A stretch of 64,000 bases of DNA from Desulfovibrio piger ATCC 29098 (GTDB lineage: Bacteria; Desulfobacterota; Desulfovibrionia; Desulfovibrionales; Desulfovibrionaceae): positions 257,570-321,569 of the forward strand of contig NZ_DS996359.1 of the NCBI RefSeq assembly GCF_000156375.1, in the 5' to 3' direction. A program made the position numbers and the translations under genes. Shown piece by piece: positions 1 to 6,176 of the stretch. Position 1 is the stretch's first letter; every line of letters starts with the position of its first letter. The notes under the pieces are model-generated. The model saw only the letters and a list, made by a program, of their open reading frames with translations, was not told the DNA's origin and searched no databases.

Positions 1-468
1 CCCCCGGTCGCTGGTCGCCACTAGCTCGCGATCCAGGGCGGCAAGTTCACCGTCCAGCATATCTACCAGCAGGCCGTCCGCATTGCCCGGCAGGGACAGA
101 CGGTCACGGAGCAGGGGCAGCAGTTCACCGGCCACGGCCCGCACACCACGCAGGGCGTCCCGGTACTCATGAAGGGCATGGGCCGCCGCTTTCAGGTCAT
201 CCAGGGCGGCTTGTGCGTGGCGCTCCAGCTTGCCCCGCTCATCCGGCAAGGACTGTTGAGCGCACCAGTTCAACACATGCCGAAAACTGAATCCGGGCAG
301 ATCATGCAGGGATTCCTCTCCCCAGTCCGCCAGCAGGTCTTGCAGCAGCGCCTCATAGCGGGCCGCCGGTTCTTGTCCGCAAGGATTCTCCGCAGCGGCG
401 ACGTGAAGGGCAGCATTGATGGCGGCAATCTGGGATTCAGTCAGCAGAACGACATCAGCGTTACGCAT
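1..468 (-). CDS. Hypothetical element protein, truncated by window edge
   Basis: An open frame of 156 codons starts at ATG 466-468 and has no stop before the window edge, so the C terminus is missing. The visible part is Ala/Leu-rich and probably helical, with a few Cys and Trp residues (for example NWCAQQ near residue 71). I do not recognise a family. Its start overlaps the stop of the preceding frame by 8 nt (ATGCGTAA), and the GGAGG-type ribosome-binding site lies inside the last codons of that frame. This implies translational coupling to the upstream antisense-regulated frame. In phages P1 and P4 the gene placed like this is the effector controlled by the antisense RNA; that role here is inference only. 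Confidence 0.7.
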   Translation of the reverse strand, partial: MRNADVVLLTESQIAAINAALHVAAAENPCGQEPAARYEALLQDLLADWGEESLHDLPGFSFRHVLNWCAQQSLPDERGKLERHAQAALDDLKAAAHALHEYRDALRGVRAVAGELLPLLRDRLSLPGNADGLLVDMLDGELAALDRELVATSDRG

Positions 469-886
469 GGCGCACCTCCCCGGCAGGAATGAGGTTGCAG
501 GGAAGGGCCGCGACGGTGTGCCGCAGGGCGGCGGGGATGAAAGGAATCATGGGGGCCTCGTGAGATTGGGGATGATGGAAAACAAAAAAGGCAGGGCGTA
601 ACGCTCCCCGGCTCTCACATAGCCGCCGGTCCTCACGGATACCGGACGTTACAACCCTGCCAATATGCGAAAGCAGCCCGCCGGGCATACGTCCGGCAGG
701 AGCTCCAACAGCAAAAGCAGTCTGTGTGACACGACTTCTTCCGGCATTGGGGATGCTGGAAAGGCGCGTGTGACGCCTTGTGAGATTTGGGGCCACCAGA
801 AGGCCACAGAGGCCCGCAAAAGTCAAGGGGCGGCCACCGGCAAGGGGGCGGCTCATTTCATGCCGGAGAAGGGAACTACGCAGCAT
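461..886 (-). CDS. Ash/Icd-like overlapping frame A
   Basis: A 141-codon frame that opens inside the end of the previous frame (start ATG 884-886, 11-nt overlap) and closes 8 nt into the next one. Its middle part (motifs LSSIPNAGRS, GRMPGGLL, GRVVTS) is nearly identical to frame B at 876-1382 and resembles the short Ash/Icd-like proteins annotated beside antisense RNAs in P4- and P1-like elements. The conserved stretch is the coding shadow of the structured RNA at 590-661, so part of its protein conservation may really be RNA conservation. A second start, ATG 548-550 with its own GAGG site, would give only 29 residues ending GEVRHA. That internal start is the predicted antisense target. Whether the long or the short product is made cannot be decided from sequence. 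Confidence 0.45.
   Translation of the reverse strand: MLRSSLLRHEMSRPLAGGRPLTFAGLCGLLVAPNLTRRHTRLSSIPNAGRSRVTQTAFAVGAPAGRMPGGLLSHIGRVVTSGIREDRRLCESRGALRPAFFVFHHPQSHEAPMIPFIPAALRHTVAALPCNLIPAGEVRHA
548..566 (-). promoter_or_regulatory. Antisense-target ribosome-binding site, unit A
   Basis: Read on the minus strand this is TCTCAC, then GAGG, then five C and ATG (start at 550). The TCTCAC stretch is complementary to the terminal-hairpin loop of the adjacent structured RNA (590-661), which carries GTGAGA. A second copy of the target, TCTCACAAGG, lies on the other side of the RNA at about 776-785 and pairs over 7 nt. This is the arrangement of C4-type antisense control, in which the RNA covers a ribosome-binding site on its own transcript. 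Confidence 0.6.
581..776. repeat. Long direct repeat, copy A
   Basis: This 196-bp stretch matches 1101-1296 at a constant offset of 520 bp with substitutions only. It contains the structured RNA and most of the Ash/Icd-like reading frame. Similarity continues less cleanly on the left through the GGGGGCCTCG ribosome-binding region near 551. The differences cluster in RNA stems and loops, not randomly. Confidence 0.9.
590..661 (-). ncRNA. C4-like antisense RNA, copy A
   Basis: The 72-nt minus-strand RNA folds with an outer stem GGCAGGG/CCCTGCC, a second stem GTAACG/CGTTAC, and two inner hairpins. The first is CCGGT/ACCGG closing the loop ATCCGTGAGG; the second is CGGCT/AGCCG closing ATGTGAG. 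The 3' end runs into CTTTTTTGTTTT, a terminator-like or processing boundary. The second copy (1110-1181) keeps every stem by compensatory changes. The loop GTGAGA pairs with the downstream ribosome-binding site at 556-565. The layout matches what I know of the C4 antisense RNA family (phage P1 C4, P4 CI). A covariance-model search against that family would settle the name. Confidence 0.7.
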
Positions 887-1382
887 GGCGCACCTCCTCC
901 ACGGTCAGGACGTTGCCGAGCATGGCCCAGCGCACACGGGCCGACGTGGACAGCGACGTGCCCAGCAGGGCCACAAGGGCGGCAGTTTCACCGGCACGGG
1001 CCAGCTTGCGAAGAAGGAAGGACAGGGACGCACGGCCACCGCAGGACGCGGGGCGGAAAAGGGGGATGGAATGCATGGGGGCCTCGCAAAGTTTGGGGAA
1101 AACAAAAAAGGCAGGGTATAACGCTCCCCGGCCTTTGCGAAGCCGCCAGTCCTCACGGATACTGGACGTTACAACCCTGCCAATATGTGCAAGCAGCCCG
1201 CCGGGCATACGTCCGGCAGGAGCATTGACAGCAAAAGCAGTCTGCGCGGCAAGACTTCTTCCGGCATTGGGGATGCTGGAAAGGCGCTTGCTACGCCTCG
1301 CAAAGTTTGGGAACTCAACCATGCCCAAAGCCAGGGCGCGCGTCAAGGGCCGCAAAGATCCAGCGGTATTGCTACGCAGCAT
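876..1382 (-). CDS. Ash/Icd-like overlapping frame B
   Basis: A 168-codon frame starting at ATG 1380-1382 inside the end of the previous gene (overlap ATGCTGCGTAG) and ending EVRHAA 11 nt into frame A. The central segment is a paralogue of frame A and overlaps the structured RNA at 1110-1181. An internal ATG at 1074-1076 has a GCGAGG ribosome-binding site followed by five C. It would give a 66-residue product beginning MHSIPLF and containing a Leu/Ala-rich stretch. That internal start is the predicted antisense target. By analogy with P1 icd the short form may be the functional product. The last codons contain the GGAGG that serves the next frame, a coupling arrangement seen at three successive junctions here. 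Confidence 0.5.
   Translation of the reverse strand: MLRSNTAGSLRPLTRALALGMVEFPNFARRSKRLSSIPNAGRSLAAQTAFAVNAPAGRMPGGLLAHIGRVVTSSIREDWRLRKGRGALYPAFFVFPKLCEAPMHSIPLFRPASCGGRASLSFLLRKLARAGETAALVALLGTSLSTSARVRWAMLGNVLTVEEVRHAA
1074..1092 (-). promoter_or_regulatory. Antisense-target ribosome-binding site, unit B
   Basis: The minus strand reads CTTTGCG, AGG, five C, ATG (start 1076). CTTTGCG is a perfect 7-nt complement of CGCAAAG in the terminal-hairpin loop of the RNA at 1110-1181. The same CTTTGCGAGG occurs again upstream of the RNA at 1297-1305. In unit A both targets and the loop are changed together to the CTCAC/GTGAG version, which supports real base pairing. Confidence 0.65.
1101..1296. 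repeat. Long direct repeat, copy B
   Basis: Partner of 581-776 at a fixed 520-bp offset. The copy includes the structured RNA and the flanking target motif on both sides. No inverted ends or transposase are associated with it, so local tandem duplication within the element is the simplest origin. Confidence 0.9.
1110..1181 (-). ncRNA. C4-like antisense RNA, copy B
   Basis: Same 72-nt fold as copy A. Outer stem GGCAGGG/CCCTGCC is unchanged. GTAACG pairs with CGTTAT (one G-C became G.U). CCAGT pairs with ACTGG, replacing CCGGT/ACCGG. The terminal hairpin is CGGCTT/AGGCCG with loop CGCAA, replacing CGGCT/AGCCG. Loop ATCCGTGAGG of the first hairpin is identical in both copies. The RNA is followed by CTTTTTTGTTTT. 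Its loop CGCAAAG is complementary to CTTTGCG at both flanking target sites. Confidence 0.7.
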
Positions 1383-1818
1383 GGCAGCCCTCCTTCACCT
1401 TGAAGCCGGGGCAGAGGACAGGCCAGCCGCGACCGTCCGGCAGGTAATGGGAACGGCATCCCACAAGGCCGATGATGGCGGCCCGGAAGGACGGCACGAT
1501 GCCATGCCTACAGACACGGCAGAGCCAGCTTTGACGGGGGGCCGGTGCAGGATCGGCCCAGGTCTCTTCCCACTTGCCGGGCGCGAACAGGTCACACCAC
1601 CCGGCGGCGGTACGGAGCTTTTCGCCGGTCATCATGCAGAGCTTGCGATCATGGCCGGAGGCCAGGGCCACAATACGGAAAAACTGGCAGCAGGAGCAGC
1701 ATTCGGATTGCGAGGAGCGGGGCGGTGTGGCAGAATAAGGGCAAGCAAGATCCCTCACCTTGCCGCCTTTTTTACCTGCCCCCACCGCCGCCAAGCTGGG
1801 GGCTTTTTTATTACGCAT
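1372..1818 (-). CDS. Cys-rich hypothetical element protein
   Basis: A 148-residue frame beginning MRNKKAPS at ATG 1816-1818, which overlaps the alpA stop by 8 nt (ATGCGTAA). Cysteines occur in clusters (CCSCCQFF near residue 41; CRVCRHG near 104; later single Cys), suggesting a metal-binding or zinc-finger-like fold, but I recognise no family. A segment around GEKLRTAAGWCDLF reads like authentic protein. Its last codons (GAGGGC) provide the ribosome-binding site for the next overlapping frame. It belongs to the alpA transcription unit. Function unknown; codon use is compatible with coding but homology would be needed to confirm it. Confidence 0.5.
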   Translation of the reverse strand: MRNKKAPSLAAVGAGKKGGKVRDLACPYSATPPRSSQSECCSCCQFFRIVALASGHDRKLCMMTGEKLRTAAGWCDLFAPGKWEETWADPAPAPRQSWLCRVCRHGIVPSFRAAIIGLVGCRSHYLPDGRGWPVLCPGFKVKEGCHAA

Positions 1819-2047
1819 TGACAGCCCCCTCACCGGCATTGAGACGGTCGATCAGGGCGCGCACATCTTCCACACGATAGCCGCGGGCACGCTTGCCCAG
1901 GGCCACGGGCTGGGGGAAATCCCCGGAGCGTACGCCGTTGTACCAGGCTGTCTTGCAGACGGGCACGAGCTTCAGCACATCGGCCAGGCGCAGAAACCCG
2001 GTTTCCGGCAGGACAGGGGCGGAAGGCTTTTGGACAGTAGCGGGCAT
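1811..2047 (-). CDS. AlpA-family transcriptional regulator
   Basis: A 78-residue DNA-binding protein of the AlpA/excisionase-like winged-helix family. It shows the typical pattern: FLRLADVLKLVPV, then KTAWYNGVRSGDFPQPV, then LGKRARGYRVEDVRALID. AlpA proteins in P4-like elements activate excision or delayed genes. Here it heads a chain of at least four overlapping genes running left. The start at 2047 is supported by AAGGAGG 7 nt upstream, but that site lies in the 3' arm of a perfect hairpin (2053-2088), so expression is probably controlled at the leader. Family assignment is secure; the target genes are not known. Confidence 0.88.
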   Translation of the reverse strand: MPATVQKPSAPVLPETGFLRLADVLKLVPVCKTAWYNGVRSGDFPQPVALGKRARGYRVEDVRALIDRLNAGEGAVNA

Positions 2048-3502: not shown

Positions 3503-3817
3503 TCATGCCTCACACAGCGCCCGCCGCACCACGTCCGGGGCGACCTCGATAACACGCAGATAGGCCCGTGCCGCCGGATCGGGCTGCCGTCTGCCCTGTT
3601 CCCAGTTGCGCAGGGTATAGAGGGACAGACCAAAGGCAGCGGCAAAGACGGCTTGAGAAAGGCCAAGCTTTTGCCGGATGGCCTTCACGTCCACCCGTTC
3701 GGGAGCACTGGCCGGGGGAAAGTCATGTACGCCGTATTGCGCCCTGTCTGCCGTCCCGTCCATGTAGCCTACAGCTTCAGTCAGACCGGCAATGATTTCT
3801 TGTCCTATCGTGCTCAT
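3503..3817 (-). CDS. HigA/NadS-like antitoxin, XRE family
   Basis: A 104-residue protein with a C-terminal helix-turn-helix of the Cro/CI type: KAIRQKLGLSQAVFAAAFGL, followed by LYTLRNWEQGRRQPD, the classic HigA-type recognition region, then a proline-and-alanine stretch. It is the antitoxin partner of the preceding RelE/HigB-like gene; the toxin stop and antitoxin start share ATGA. Toxin-first order is characteristic of higBA modules. The antitoxin probably represses the shared promoter at 4171-4198. Such modules stabilise integrated elements. Assignment to the family is firm; the exact subfamily is not. Confidence 0.85.
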   Translation of the reverse strand: MSTIGQEIIAGLTEAVGYMDGTADRAQYGVHDFPPASAPERVDVKAIRQKLGLSQAVFAAAFGLSLYTLRNWEQGRRQPDPAARAYLRVIEVAPDVVRRALCEA

Positions 3818-4149
3818 GGCTTTTGTCTCCCATATGCTGCAAGCAGCGCCGTCAGTCGGCGCATATCATTCTTTTCGGCTTGCGTCAGATTCGCTTTTTC
3901 GTTCTTCCCGTATATCAGCAGGGCAAACAGGGGAATGCGCTCGGAATGAAAGTAGTAGATCACCCTGTAGCCGCCGCTCTTGCCTTCTCCTTCTCTTGCC
4001 CATCGCAGCTTGCGAACGCCGCCCGTGCCTTCCATGACCTTTCCACTGTCGGGATGTTCGGCCAGGTAGGCCACCAAATCGGCCCGCTCCGCTTCGGAGA
4101 GAATCCCCTTGGCCCTGCGCAAAAAGGCGGGGGTTTCAATAACGGTCAT
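3814..4149 (-). CDS. RelE/HigB-like toxin
   Basis: A roughly 111-residue toxin of the RelE/ParE superfamily beginning MTVIETPAFLRRAK. Family features are GGVRKLRWA, GGYRVIYYF and the C-terminal YGKNEKANLTQAEKN signature, common in HigB-like ribosome-dependent mRNA endonucleases. I chose ATG 4147-4149. An upstream ATG at 4180-4182 lies upstream of the -10 element of the predicted promoter and so cannot be on the main transcript. ATG 4162-4164 would be at the predicted transcript start and nearly leaderless. No clear Shine-Dalgarno precedes any of these. The gene overlaps the antitoxin by 4 nt. Confidence 0.83.
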   Translation of the reverse strand: MTVIETPAFLRRAKGILSEAERADLVAYLAEHPDSGKVMEGTGGVRKLRWAREGEGKSGGYRVIYYFHSERIPLFALLIYGKNEKANLTQAEKNDMRRLTALLAAYGRQKP

Positions 4150-4170
4150 AGGTGGTGTGTTCATGGTTCT

Positions 4171-4198
4171 ATTGTAAGTCATTGGCTTATAAGGTCAA
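4171..4198 (-). promoter_or_regulatory. Promoter of the toxin-antitoxin operon
   Basis: On the minus strand TTGACC (4193-4198), a 16-nt spacer, and TACAAT (4171-4176) match a sigma70-type promoter well. The predicted transcript start is near 4164, which decides against the longest toxin frame. Confidence 0.65.
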
Positions 4199-4522: not shown

Positions 4523-5728
4523 TCATTCTTCGTTATCCCCTTCACCGTCCCGCAAGCTGTCCAGATAGTCGGCCCACTCCTGCATCATGCGGCGGCGCTC
4601 TTCCACATACTGGGCGCGGTTGTAGGCATCCCGCACGCTGTTCCTTTCGGCATGGGCAAGCTGTGCCTCGATCACGTCAGGGCGGTAGCCCATTTCATTC
4701 AGCCGGGTAGAGGCCATGCTGCGGAAGCCGTGGACGGTCATTTCATCCCTGCCGTAGCCAAGGCGGCGCAGGGCGTTGAGCAGGCCAACATCAGATATGC
4801 AGCGCGTGACGGAAGCCGTGCCGGGAAAGACAAGCTCCCTGTTGCCGGTGATGGCGTGTAGGGCGCGGAACATCCCCACCACTTGCCGGGCAAGCGGGAC
4901 AAGGTGGGGCCGCCGCATCTTCATGCGTTCGGCAGGTATCAGCCATTCCGCCCTGTCCAGGTCGATTTCCGCCCAGGTGGCCCGCCGCAGCTCGCTGGAG
5001 CGGACAAAGACATACGGCATGATCTTCAGGGCGAAGGAGACGGACACGTCCCCCGGATAGTCATCTATGGCCCGGAGCAGGGCGCCTATCTCCCGCGGTT
5101 CGGTGATGGCGGCATGGAGGCGCACCGGCTTTGTGGTCAGGGCTTCGGTCAGATGGCTTGCCGGATCGGCGACGATCATCCCGGCAAGGCGTGCGTAGCG
5201 CGTCACCTGTCCGCATATCTGGGCAAGGCGGCGGGCTGTCTCCAGGTGGCCTTGCCGCTCCACCTTGCCCAGCACAGCCAGGAAGTCAGGCGCGCCAAGC
5301 TCGGCAATGGGCCTGCTGCCAAGATCAGGAAAGGCCAGGGTCTCCAGCCGCCGGATAATCTGCCGGGCATGGTTGGGCGTCCAGCCCGCCAGCTTCTTCT
5401 TGTGCCATTCCCGCGCCACCACTTCAAAGGTACGGCTCCTGGCGATGGCTTCCGCCTTGGCGGCCTTGCGTGCGGCGCACGGGTCCACGCCACGGGCGAT
5501 CATTTCCTTTGCCGTGACAGCCCTGGCCCGCGCCTCCTTGAGGGAAACGGCAGGATAGGTGCCGATGGCAAAAAGACGTTCCTTCCCCTCAAAGCGGTAC
5601 TTGAGGCGCCAGAGCTTGCCGCCGCCTGGATTGACCAGCACATACAGCCCGCCGCTGTCCGCCATCTTGTAGGGCTTTTCCTTGGGCTTCGCCGTCCTGA
5701 TGGCGGTATCCGTCAGCTTCTTGGGCAT
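4523..5728 (-). CDS. int: P4-type tyrosine recombinase (integrase)
   Basis: A 401-residue site-specific recombinase that would integrate and excise the element at tRNA-Ser. The N terminus has the DUF4102-type arm-binding domain (LTDTAIRTAKPKEKPYKMAD, GGLYVLVNPGG, IGTYPAVSLKEAR). A SAM-like core-binding domain follows, then the catalytic domain with RSSELRRATW, the HGFRSM box, LAHAERNSVRDAYNR and a final tyrosine (RAQY). All expected catalytic residues are visible. The start at 5728 (MPKKLTDT) has AGGAG 8 nt upstream; a longer frame from 5749 would put that site inside the gene. It faces away from the tRNA, with its promoter in the short gap containing GGGGGTA repeats. Confidence 0.95.
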   Translation of the reverse strand: MPKKLTDTAIRTAKPKEKPYKMADSGGLYVLVNPGGGKLWRLKYRFEGKERLFAIGTYPAVSLKEARARAVTAKEMIARGVDPCAARKAAKAEAIARSRTFEVVAREWHKKKLAGWTPNHARQIIRRLETLAFPDLGSRPIAELGAPDFLAVLGKVERQGHLETARRLAQICGQVTRYARLAGMIVADPASHLTEALTTKPVRLHAAITEPREIGALLRAIDDYPGDVSVSFALKIMPYVFVRSSELRRATWAEIDLDRAEWLIPAERMKMRRPHLVPLARQVVGMFRALHAITGNRELVFPGTASVTRCISDVGLLNALRRLGYGRDEMTVHGFRSMASTRLNEMGYRPDVIEAQLAHAERNSVRDAYNRAQYVEERRRMMQEWADYLDSLRDGEGDNEE

Positions 5729-5729
5729 T

Positions 5730-5788
5730 GGGGGTACTCCTGACTTCAAGGGGGTATGTTTTTTTCAGATACCCCCGAAAGTACCCCC
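5730..5788. repeat. GGGGGTA repeats, direct and inverted
   Basis: GGGGGTAC (5730-5737) and GGGGGTAT (5750-5757) are followed by inverted ATACCCCC (5769-5776) and GTACCCCC (5781-5788). Farther right, GAACTTTG[GA]CG occurs at 5808 and 5881. These lie between the integrase start and the tRNA, where arm-type recombinase or excisionase sites are expected. Confidence 0.6.
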
Positions 5789-5901
5789 TCTTTTTGCGGC
5801 TGTCTATGAACTTTGGCGGACTTCAACGGACATCAAAAACGAAGAAAGTCCGCTCAGCTCAAGGCTTTGCGGACTTCTACGAACTTTGACGAACTATAGT
5901 T

Positions 5902-5991
5902 TGGCGGAGGGGGAGGGATTTGAACCCCCGGAAGGCGTGAACCTTCAGCGGTTTTCAAGACCGCCGCAATCAACCACTCTGCCACCCCTCC
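5902..5991 (-). tRNA. tRNA-Ser (UGA)
   Basis: A 90-nt tRNA with long variable arm. Acceptor GGAGGGG pairs with CCCCTCC, discriminator G and encoded CCA at 5902-5904. The anticodon stem-loop GCGGTCT-TGA-AAACCGC gives anticodon TGA. The T arm GGGTTCAAATCCC is intact. The 3' end faces the integrase, making it the probable attachment site; the gene stays complete, as usual for P4-type integration. Confidence 0.96.
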
Positions 5992-6176
5992 GTGCGGAGC
6001 AGACCGCGCCGTCACCTGCAGCCACCCTGCGGGCGGCGATCATGGCCGGGGACGGTGTTTCGTCTGCGGGCTGCCGGGCCGCGGCACAGGGCCTGCCCGT
6101 CAGAACAGCCAGAAGCATATAGCATTTTGGGCCCCGGAGCGTAAAGGGAAAGCTGCCGACGGGCCCGCCGGACCAT

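What the first reader, a model, noticed from the sequence alone, without database searches (positions are those of the whole stretch)
461..1310. Tandem pair of C4-type antisense switches with co-varying loop and target
Two 72-nt RNAs (590-661 and 1110-1181, minus strand) share one fold. Stems change in a compensated way: CCGGT/ACCGG versus CCAGT/ACTGG, and CGGCT/AGCCG versus CGGCTT/AGGCCG. The terminal loop of each RNA is complementary to a target on both sides of it: TCTCAC in unit A, CTTTGCG in unit B. The downstream target overlaps the ribosome-binding site of an internal ATG (550 and 1076). Loop and both targets differ between units but always match within a unit. This looks like duplication followed by specificity divergence, giving two separately addressed antisense controls in one transcript.
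Basis: partly seen in the sequence, partly recalled or inferred. Interest (0 to 1): 0.88.

Follow-up and report, generated by a model that had tools for sequence, protein, structure and literature searches.

The report
Paired address-tagged phage-type antisense RNA switches
A mobile element in a Desulfovibrio-family genome carries two side-by-side RNA switches, each probably shutting off its own downstream gene through a short matching "address", and relatives show RNA loop and both matching sites changed together, so that dozens of different addresses exist.

Summary
Both RNAs fold into one three-way junction. A covariance model built from 18 such units finds related units in 36 of 288 genomes of the family. 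Among 77 analysed units there are 60 different P3 loops. The loop is complementary to a 5' target and to a 3' target at the ribosome-binding site; none of 20,000 loop/target permutations reaches the observed pairing on either side. Window unit B and a unit of another genome differ at 25 of 327 columns, 15 of which are three complete 5-nt blocks: loop and both targets. A TTGAC box lies upstream of the 5' target in 57 of 58 units, which suggests two transcription cassettes rather than two controls in one transcript. The logic is that of P4 CI RNA and P1 C4. By sequence the nearest Rfam family is c4-2 (RF02944), reached only below its cut-off and only by sister units; RF01695 does not match. Verdict: a divergent, hypervariable branch of C4-type antisense RNAs, here in tandem with two addresses. 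Function is inferred; I have no expression data.

The parts
1342..1346 (-). TTGAC, -35-like box of unit B
   Evidence: position; TTGAC lies within 75 nt upstream of the address in 57 of 58 units with a cognate 5' target and distinct upstream DNA, in 54 of these 57 at 39-45 nt
1296..1312 (-). unit B 5' target (TCCCAAACTTTGCGAGG)
   Evidence: complement of loop B (score 9.3) with a CCC box
1110..1181 (-). unit B antisense RNA, three-way junction
   Evidence: fold z -3.5; model R1 84.7 bits, but it is one of the 18 training sequences
1134..1140 (-). unit B P3 address loop UCGCAAA
1124..1129 (-). unit B J3/1 GGGGAG, probable second contact
   Evidence: complement of the CCC box of both targets
1104..1109 (-). 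U-run after P1 of unit B (terminator-like)
   Evidence: T run of 4 or more within 12 nt after P1 in 76 of 77 units
1082..1098 (-). unit B 3' target overlapping the Shine-Dalgarno GAGG
876..1076 (-). unit B target ORF, 66 aa, ATG 1076, ends ..EVRHAA
876..1382 (-). 168-aa frame read through unit B, in frame with the 66-aa ORF
   Evidence: such an open frame in 32 of 66 units only, so not a family rule
822..826 (-). TTGAC, -35-like box of unit A
776..792 (-). unit A 5' target (CCCCAAATCTCACAAGG)
   Evidence: score 7
590..661 (-). unit A antisense RNA, three-way junction
   Evidence: fold z -3.4; model R1 85.6 bits, but it is one of the 18 training sequences
614..620 (-). unit A P3 address loop AUGUGAG
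604..609 (-). unit A J3/1 GGGGAG, probable second contact
584..589 (-). U-run after P1 of unit A
556..572 (-). unit A 3' target overlapping the Shine-Dalgarno GAGG
   Evidence: score 6.3
461..550 (-). unit A target ORF, 29 aa, ATG 550, ends ..EVRHA
461..886 (-). 141-aa frame read through unit A, in frame with the 29-aa ORF
1811..2047 (-). AlpA-type regulator upstream in the element
   Evidence: PF05930 E 7.9e-6, 26.1 bits over cut-off 21
4523..5749 (-). tyrosine integrase beside a tRNA gene at 5905-5991
   Evidence: PF00589, PF22022, PF13356; tRNA

Best explanation
Two tandem C4/CI-type antisense cassettes of a P4-like integrative element. In each cassette a promoter starts a transcript at or just before the 5' target; the RNA after it folds into a three-way junction and ends at a U-run. 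The released RNA reads the 3' target through the P3 loop, which pairs with the 6-9 nt address beside the Shine-Dalgarno, and probably through J3/1, which pairs with the CCC box before it. This blocks translation (and by polarity probably transcription) of the small ORF and of the genes behind it, among them the Toprim/DUF927 gene. Pairing with the 5' target acts as a second control point or decoy, as seqA does in P4. Because the addresses differ, units A and B act separately. Shown: fold, loop complementarity to both sides, its covariation, conserved TTGAC box and U-run. Inferred: promoter activity, RNA ends, repression, immunity.
For: Fold: 94.6% of cells paired, 23 of 25 pairs with changes on both sides against 15.8 in shuffles; the rows were fitted to the model and 10 of the 91 are opposite-strand hits. 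Loop/target: 0 of 20,000 permutations reach the observed sum on either side; of 60 distinct loops 48 match on both sides and 54 on at least one, with an off-diagonal match rate of 11-12%; of all 77 units 58 match on both sides, 11 on one, 8 on neither. Concerted change: B against L005, 15 of 25 differences fill three 5-nt blocks (hypergeometric about 1e-19, blocks and pair chosen after seeing the alignment). Second contact: 64 of 65 5' targets and 58 of 62 3' targets found have a complement of 3 nt or more to J3/1 in the 10 nt before the address; shuffling J3/1 among units reaches the observed sum in 1 of 2000. TTGAC in 57 of 58. Known systems of the same logic: P1 C4 with annotated a1, b1, a2, b2, P4 CI RNA with seqA and seqC and premature termination (passage); by eye the P4 and P1 P3 loops match their SD-proximal targets. 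Element context: integrase, AlpA, Toprim/DUF927 gene downstream.
Against: No expression data. RF01695 is not met, and my models R1 and R2 do not find the P4 or P1 RNAs, so common descent with C4 is not shown by sequence. The target ORFs have no family match over a cut-off; 20 of 66 end in an xHA-type tail. The 5' target could pair with the loop in cis. 8 of 77 units have no local target at the threshold. The second contact is clear in L101, weaker elsewhere: of 11 targets in six units with another J3/1 the own J3/1 is strictly better than the common type in 7 and tied in 4. -10 boxes are weak.
Confidence: 0.8

Rival explanations
1. Cis-acting attenuator: the hairpin with its U-run is mainly a terminator in the leader, and the loop pairs with the 5' target of the same molecule to switch between folds; no trans-acting RNA exists.
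For: U-run after P1 in 76 of 77 units; the 5' target lies on the same presumed transcript about 90-140 nt upstream of P1.
Against: Cis switching does not explain why a second target at the Shine-Dalgarno beyond the U-run changes with the loop. C4 and CI RNAs are processed RNAs that act on separate targets in P1 and P4 (passages).
Confidence: 0.12
2. The hypervariable addresses work as exclusion tags between elements (heteroimmunity), and the tandem gives one element immunity to two groups. This is an extension of the best explanation rather than a contradiction.
For: 60 distinct loops among 77 units; P1 and P7 C4 with their targets differ by 4 nt and do not cross-react, as told in PMC5320573 (passage); six different loops in the window's own genome.
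Against: Identical loops are not rarer within genomes than expected: 2 of 87 within-genome pairs, 0.68 expected after shuffling. Loops without a local target do not match targets of other elements above background.
Confidence: 0.4
3. Repeated protein-coding sequence (long frames 461-886 and 876-1382) with incidental RNA structure.
For: Both long frames are open and overlap like coupled genes.
Against: The frame is open through the RNA in 32 of 66 units only, while stems, loop and targets covary; no protein family match for the long frames.
Confidence: 0.03

Closest known systems
c4-2 RNA, Rfam RF02944 (clan CL00128)
   Same: Three-way junction with bulged P2 and tetraloop; two sister units of the own genome score 36.8 and 32.6 bits, three relatives 39.0, 36.6 and 32.8 bits. 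Of the sub-threshold c4-2 hits of other genomes that I read correctly (L167, L168, L169, L170) a loop complement is found on both sides in L168 (7 nt) and L169 (6 nt), and by eye beside the ATG in L167 and L170.
   Different: No unit reaches the cut-off of 41 bits, 0 of 288 genomes; the window's own two units do not appear at all. The paper that describes c4-2 was not available to me.
CI RNA of satellite phage P4 (seqA, seqB, seqC)
   Same: RNA with targets on both sides (passage); by eye the P3 loop matches an SD-overlapping target and the small ORF ends VVEVSRA, like EVRHA here. Gene order ORF88, cI region, epsilon, ORF151, ORF106, alpha; that ORF88 is AlpA-like and alpha a replication protein is recalled.
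   Different: RF01695 finds P4 (74.9 bits) but not these units; here the two contact sites lie about 3 nt apart and a U-run follows P1.
C4 RNA of phages P1 and P7
   Same: Annotated targets a1, b1 upstream and a2, b2 at the icd start; P3 loop against GTTAGTGAGG before ATG, by eye.
   Different: a2 and b2 are 22 nt apart in P1. In P1/P7 and Acinetobacter the variable, specificity-giving part is a' (passage), which in P1 is J3/1; here the SD-proximal P3 loop is hypervariable and J3/1 nearly constant.
C4-like sRNAs of Acinetobacter baumannii (PMC5320573, passages read)
   Same: Many C4-like RNAs in one genome with variable specificity loops.
   Different: The main text does not contain the word tandem; in the passages I saw, chromosomal targets are proposed and local target covariation is not described.

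Membership tests
C4 antisense RNA RF01695 | match to the covariance model at gathering score 45 | tested here: not met
   no match in the window; own genome best 16.5 bits, elsewhere; positive controls P4 74.9 and P1 68.8 bits
c4-2 RNA RF02944 | match at gathering score 41 | tested here: not met
   own genome best 36.8 bits, in a sister element; 0 of 288 genomes over cut-off
c4-2 RNA RF02944 | significant similarity below the cut-off | tested here: inconclusive
   sister units E 4.1e-6 and 6.3e-5 for one genome, relatives E 3.5e-5 to 0.0021; the window's own two units are not matched
C4-type antisense mechanism | three-way junction P1/P2/P3 | tested here: met
C4-type antisense mechanism | targets upstream and downstream of the RNA, the downstream one at the start of a small ORF | tested here: met
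C4-type antisense mechanism | two contacts, P3 loop (b) and J3/1 (a) | tested here: inconclusive
   J3/1 complement beside the address in most targets, 1 of 2000 shuffles reaches the sum, 4 of 11 deviant targets tied with the common type
C4-type antisense mechanism | RNase P processing at the start of P1 and an RNA of about 77 nt | not testable with these tools
   ATT|GGC at the P1 start in 41 of 77 units; no RNA data
C4-type antisense mechanism | repression of the downstream ORF and immunity | not testable with these tools
   needs reporter and immunity assays
P4-like satellite | integrase, AlpA-like regulator, CI-type RNA, Toprim-type replication gene | tested here: met
P4-like satellite | defined ends (att repeats) and mobilisation by a helper | tested here: inconclusive
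   between window 5741-6100 and L003 1-14500 no direct 14-mer was shared, only one 16-nt match in inverted orientation inside the Toprim/DUF927 gene; helper not tested

The most novel reading that the evidence does not exclude
A diversifying address system: each cassette holds three linked copies of a short address (5' target, antisense loop, 3' target) that are rewritten together while the surrounding DNA stays about 97% identical, by an unknown route, so that mobile elements acquire new mutually blind immunity types; tandem cassettes let one element carry two types.
Probability: 0.35. Interest if true: 0.82.

Novelty: new variant of a known kind. Interest (0 to 1): 0.64.

Why it matters
Phages P1, P7 and P4 gave a few examples of antisense immunity addresses. 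Here is a family with 60 different addresses among 77 units, pairing kept on both sides in 58 of the 77, and a close pair that differs mostly in loop and two targets. That gives a natural data set for how RNA-RNA specificity evolves and stays orthogonal, a set of candidate orthogonal RNA regulators, and a testable question: how do three separated sites change together?

Tried and rejected
RF01695 in window and own genome: no match there. Protein search of the unit B frame in viral contigs and phages (two records of one Rhizobium phage at E 5), and the 72-nt RNA in phages (one chance hit at E 7) and plasmids (none). Families for four small ORFs and the two long frames: nothing over a cut-off; one ORF has weak ATP-synthase-epsilon hits, best E 0.011; the window's own 29- and 66-aa ORFs were scanned only as part of the long frames. 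att repeat search: only one 16-nt inverted match. Nested long frame as a family rule: rejected, 32 of 66 (11 of 77 units have no SD-ATG within 110 nt). Avoidance of equal addresses within a genome: not seen, 2 of 87 against 0.68 expected. Foreign targets for nine units with poor local targets: best exact runs 7-9, while 52 of 68 other loops reach 7 or more (25 with 7, 25 with 8, 2 with 9) against targets of different-loop units. A first all-against-all count of block identity was marred by gaps and by overlapping pairs of one locus; I used direct alignments instead. RNAalifold on the MAFFT alignment of 18 units recovered only part of the structure, 17 pairs. Labels winA and winB in alignment A2 are swapped: the first row is unit B. 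For L166 I read the wrong stretch, so its output says nothing. Literature: nine answered searches, several swamped by unrelated papers; none listed a paper on such RNAs in Desulfovibrio, one listed ncRNA paper on a relative was checked by terms only; the paper describing c4-2 is not held. I saw passages of PMC5320573, PMC2864571, PMC4825925, PMC11701678 and PMC11124144 and read none whole.

Rows dropped: of the 91 rows, 10 opposite-strand and 4 weak ones (under 30 bits) were left out, giving 77 units; the 60 distinct loops are each represented by the highest-scoring unit. The weak rows appear and enter the J3/1 counts (L111, L112); one search used all 91 rows. The TTGAC count left out units with under 220 nt upstream, without a 5' target of 6 nt or with repeated upstream DNA; 3 of its 57 distances (15, 24, 25) fall outside the cluster, one of them from a false target call.
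Full report
What was checked. On the minus strand of 461-1382 there are two copies of a module, 84% identical over about 240 nt. Each holds, 5' to 3', a TTGAC box, a target (CCC-AAA-address-AGG), about 100 nt, a 72-nt RNA with a closing helix P1, a P2 hairpin with a GUGA tetraloop and a P3 hairpin with a variable loop, a U-run, a second copy of the target that runs into the Shine-Dalgarno GAGG, and an ATG. Both RNAs fold alone into the three-way junction.

Is it more than chance. A model of 18 units (R1) finds related units in 36 of 288 genomes of the family, 13 of 44 genera. In a draw of 395 genomes of the phylum, family members included, 5 have a match, of which 2 lie outside the family. It also hits 7 viral contigs. 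From the 91 rows I kept 77 units with at least 36 bits. They have 60 distinct P3 loops. For each distinct loop I scored the pairing with its own 3' and 5' target window and with those of all others: own means 7.4 and 8.1, others 4.6 and 4.7; none of 20,000 permutations reaches the observed sum on either side; 48 of 60 match on both sides, 54 on at least one, 6 on neither. Over all 77 units it is 58 on both, 11 on one, 8 on neither. By a stricter ranking the own loop is not strictly beaten in 36 (3') and 43 (5') of 60 targets; addresses share GAG and CAAA surroundings, so orthogonality is not absolute.

Concerted change. Window unit B and the unit of genome G126 (L005) were aligned. In 327 columns there are 25 differences; 15 of them are all positions of three 5-nt blocks at 1301-1305 (5' target), 1133-1137 (loop and the first base of the P3 3' strand) and 1087-1091 (3' target); 10 lie in the other 312 columns, 4 of these just upstream of the 3' target. 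Pairing is intact in both. This is the closest non-overlapping pair with different loops, and the blocks were named after seeing it, so the hypergeometric value of about 1e-19 is descriptive. Other close pairs (L069/L080, L093/L104, the two units of L009) show differences gathered in loop and targets, with more differences elsewhere. Window unit A and unit 2 of the second element of the same genome (L113) differ at 64 of 440 columns, with the address replaced at loop and targets. Unit B and unit 1 of L113 share the small ORF with 4 of 201 nt different while leader and RNA differ strongly: the cassettes are mosaic.

Second contact. The sequence after P3 (J3/1, mostly GGGGAG) has a complement of 3 nt or more in the 10 nt before the address in 64 of 65 5' targets and 58 of 62 3' targets found. 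Since both parts are nearly constant this proves little by itself. In six units with another J3/1 the own J3/1 fits its 11 targets strictly better than the common type in 7 and equally in 4; it is clear for L101 (UUGGUA with UACCAA, both sides), weaker for L102, L105, L107, L108 and L111, the last a weak unit of 29 bits. Shuffling J3/1 among 71 units reaches the observed sum in 1 of 2000. This would be the two-site arrangement of P1 C4 (a and b sites as annotated), with the two sites about 3 nt apart instead of 22, and with the variable part moved: in P1, P7 and Acinetobacter the specificity lies in a' (passage), which in P1 is J3/1, whereas here it lies in the P3 loop.

Transcription. TTGAC lies within 75 nt upstream of the address in 57 of 58 units, in 54 of them at 39-45 nt; about 0.07 per unit is expected by chance. 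A weak -10-like stretch follows at about 17 nt. A transcript from it would begin at or just before the 5' target. A T-run follows P1 in 76 of 77 units. I infer a promoter and a terminator-like 3' end per unit; neither was tested.

Tandems. Ten loci have two or three units within about 1 kb on one strand, in 7 genomes; three of them lie in the window's own genome. In L003, L061, L113 and L009 both units have their own flanking targets. In the back-to-back arrays L012 and L063 mainly the first RNA matches the flanking targets and the second has drifted; L064, L067 and L077 look degenerate. A viral contig (L151) has three RNAs in a row; by eye the first matches the flanking targets and the others are diverged copies. 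Duplication followed by loop drift is thus seen.

Context. The element has an integrase beside a tRNA gene, an AlpA-type protein, and on the far side a 924-aa Toprim/DUF927 protein and an ERCC4-domain protein. This resembles P4, whose record shows ORF88, the cI region, epsilon, ORF151, ORF106 and alpha in order. In some relatives (L058, L061 unit 2, L070, L072) the ORF behind the 3' target looks by eye like the Toprim protein itself.

How it most likely works. By analogy with P4, where CI RNA pairs with seqA and seqC and leads to transcription termination (passage in PMC4825925), and with P1, where the b' loop partly occludes the ribosome-binding site (passage in PMC5320573), each RNA should silence its own downstream ORF and the genes behind it, and incoming elements with the same address. 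That step is inferred. Two results do not support an exclusion role: equal addresses are not rarer within genomes than expected (2 of 87 pairs, 0.68 expected), and loops without local targets do not point to other elements above background.

Membership. RF01695 is not met. c4-2 (RF02944, same clan) is the nearest family: sister units and relatives score below the cut-off with low E-values, the window's own units not at all; c4-2-like hits in other genomes of the family show loop complements, clearest in L168. I call these a divergent branch related to c4-2 that works like C4/CI RNA, without filing them as members. R1 and R2 do not find the P1 or P4 RNAs.

Novelty. Fold, two-sided targets and variable specificity parts are known from P1, P7 and P4 and, for the variable part, Acinetobacter. 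Not met in my searches (open-licence library only): the number of addresses, the concerted change at three sites, specificity in the P3 loop, the near-contiguous two-part target, and tandem cassettes with two addresses.

Noticed in passing
window 3503-4182, minus strand: A RelE-type gene (3814-4182, PF06296) followed by an HTH gene resembling NadS and MqsA antitoxins below cut-off (3503-3817): a toxin-antitoxin-like pair inside the element.
   Followed up: partly
window 1372-1839, minus strand: 155-aa ORF, cysteine-rich, with no family over a cut-off, overlapping the start of the unit B frame with the same GCCATGCTGCGTAG junction as between units B and A.
   Followed up: partly
L151:5380-5634 and L152:6383-6531 (viral contigs): Back-to-back arrays of three and two RNAs; by eye only the first matches the flanking targets, later copies have drifted loops.
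   Followed up: partly
window 729-771 and 1249-1291, minus strand: After the 5' target a small hairpin loop (ACACG in A, GCAAG in B) has a complement about 35 nt downstream (CGTGT, CTTGC) that differs between the units in a matching way; a possible further covarying pairing, seen by eye.
   Followed up: no
L167, L168, L169, L170: A sister branch scoring below cut-off with Rfam c4-2; TTGAC is seen upstream in L167, L168 and L169 (L170 has only 75 nt upstream), with loop complements near an ATG in L167, L168 and L170.
   Followed up: partly
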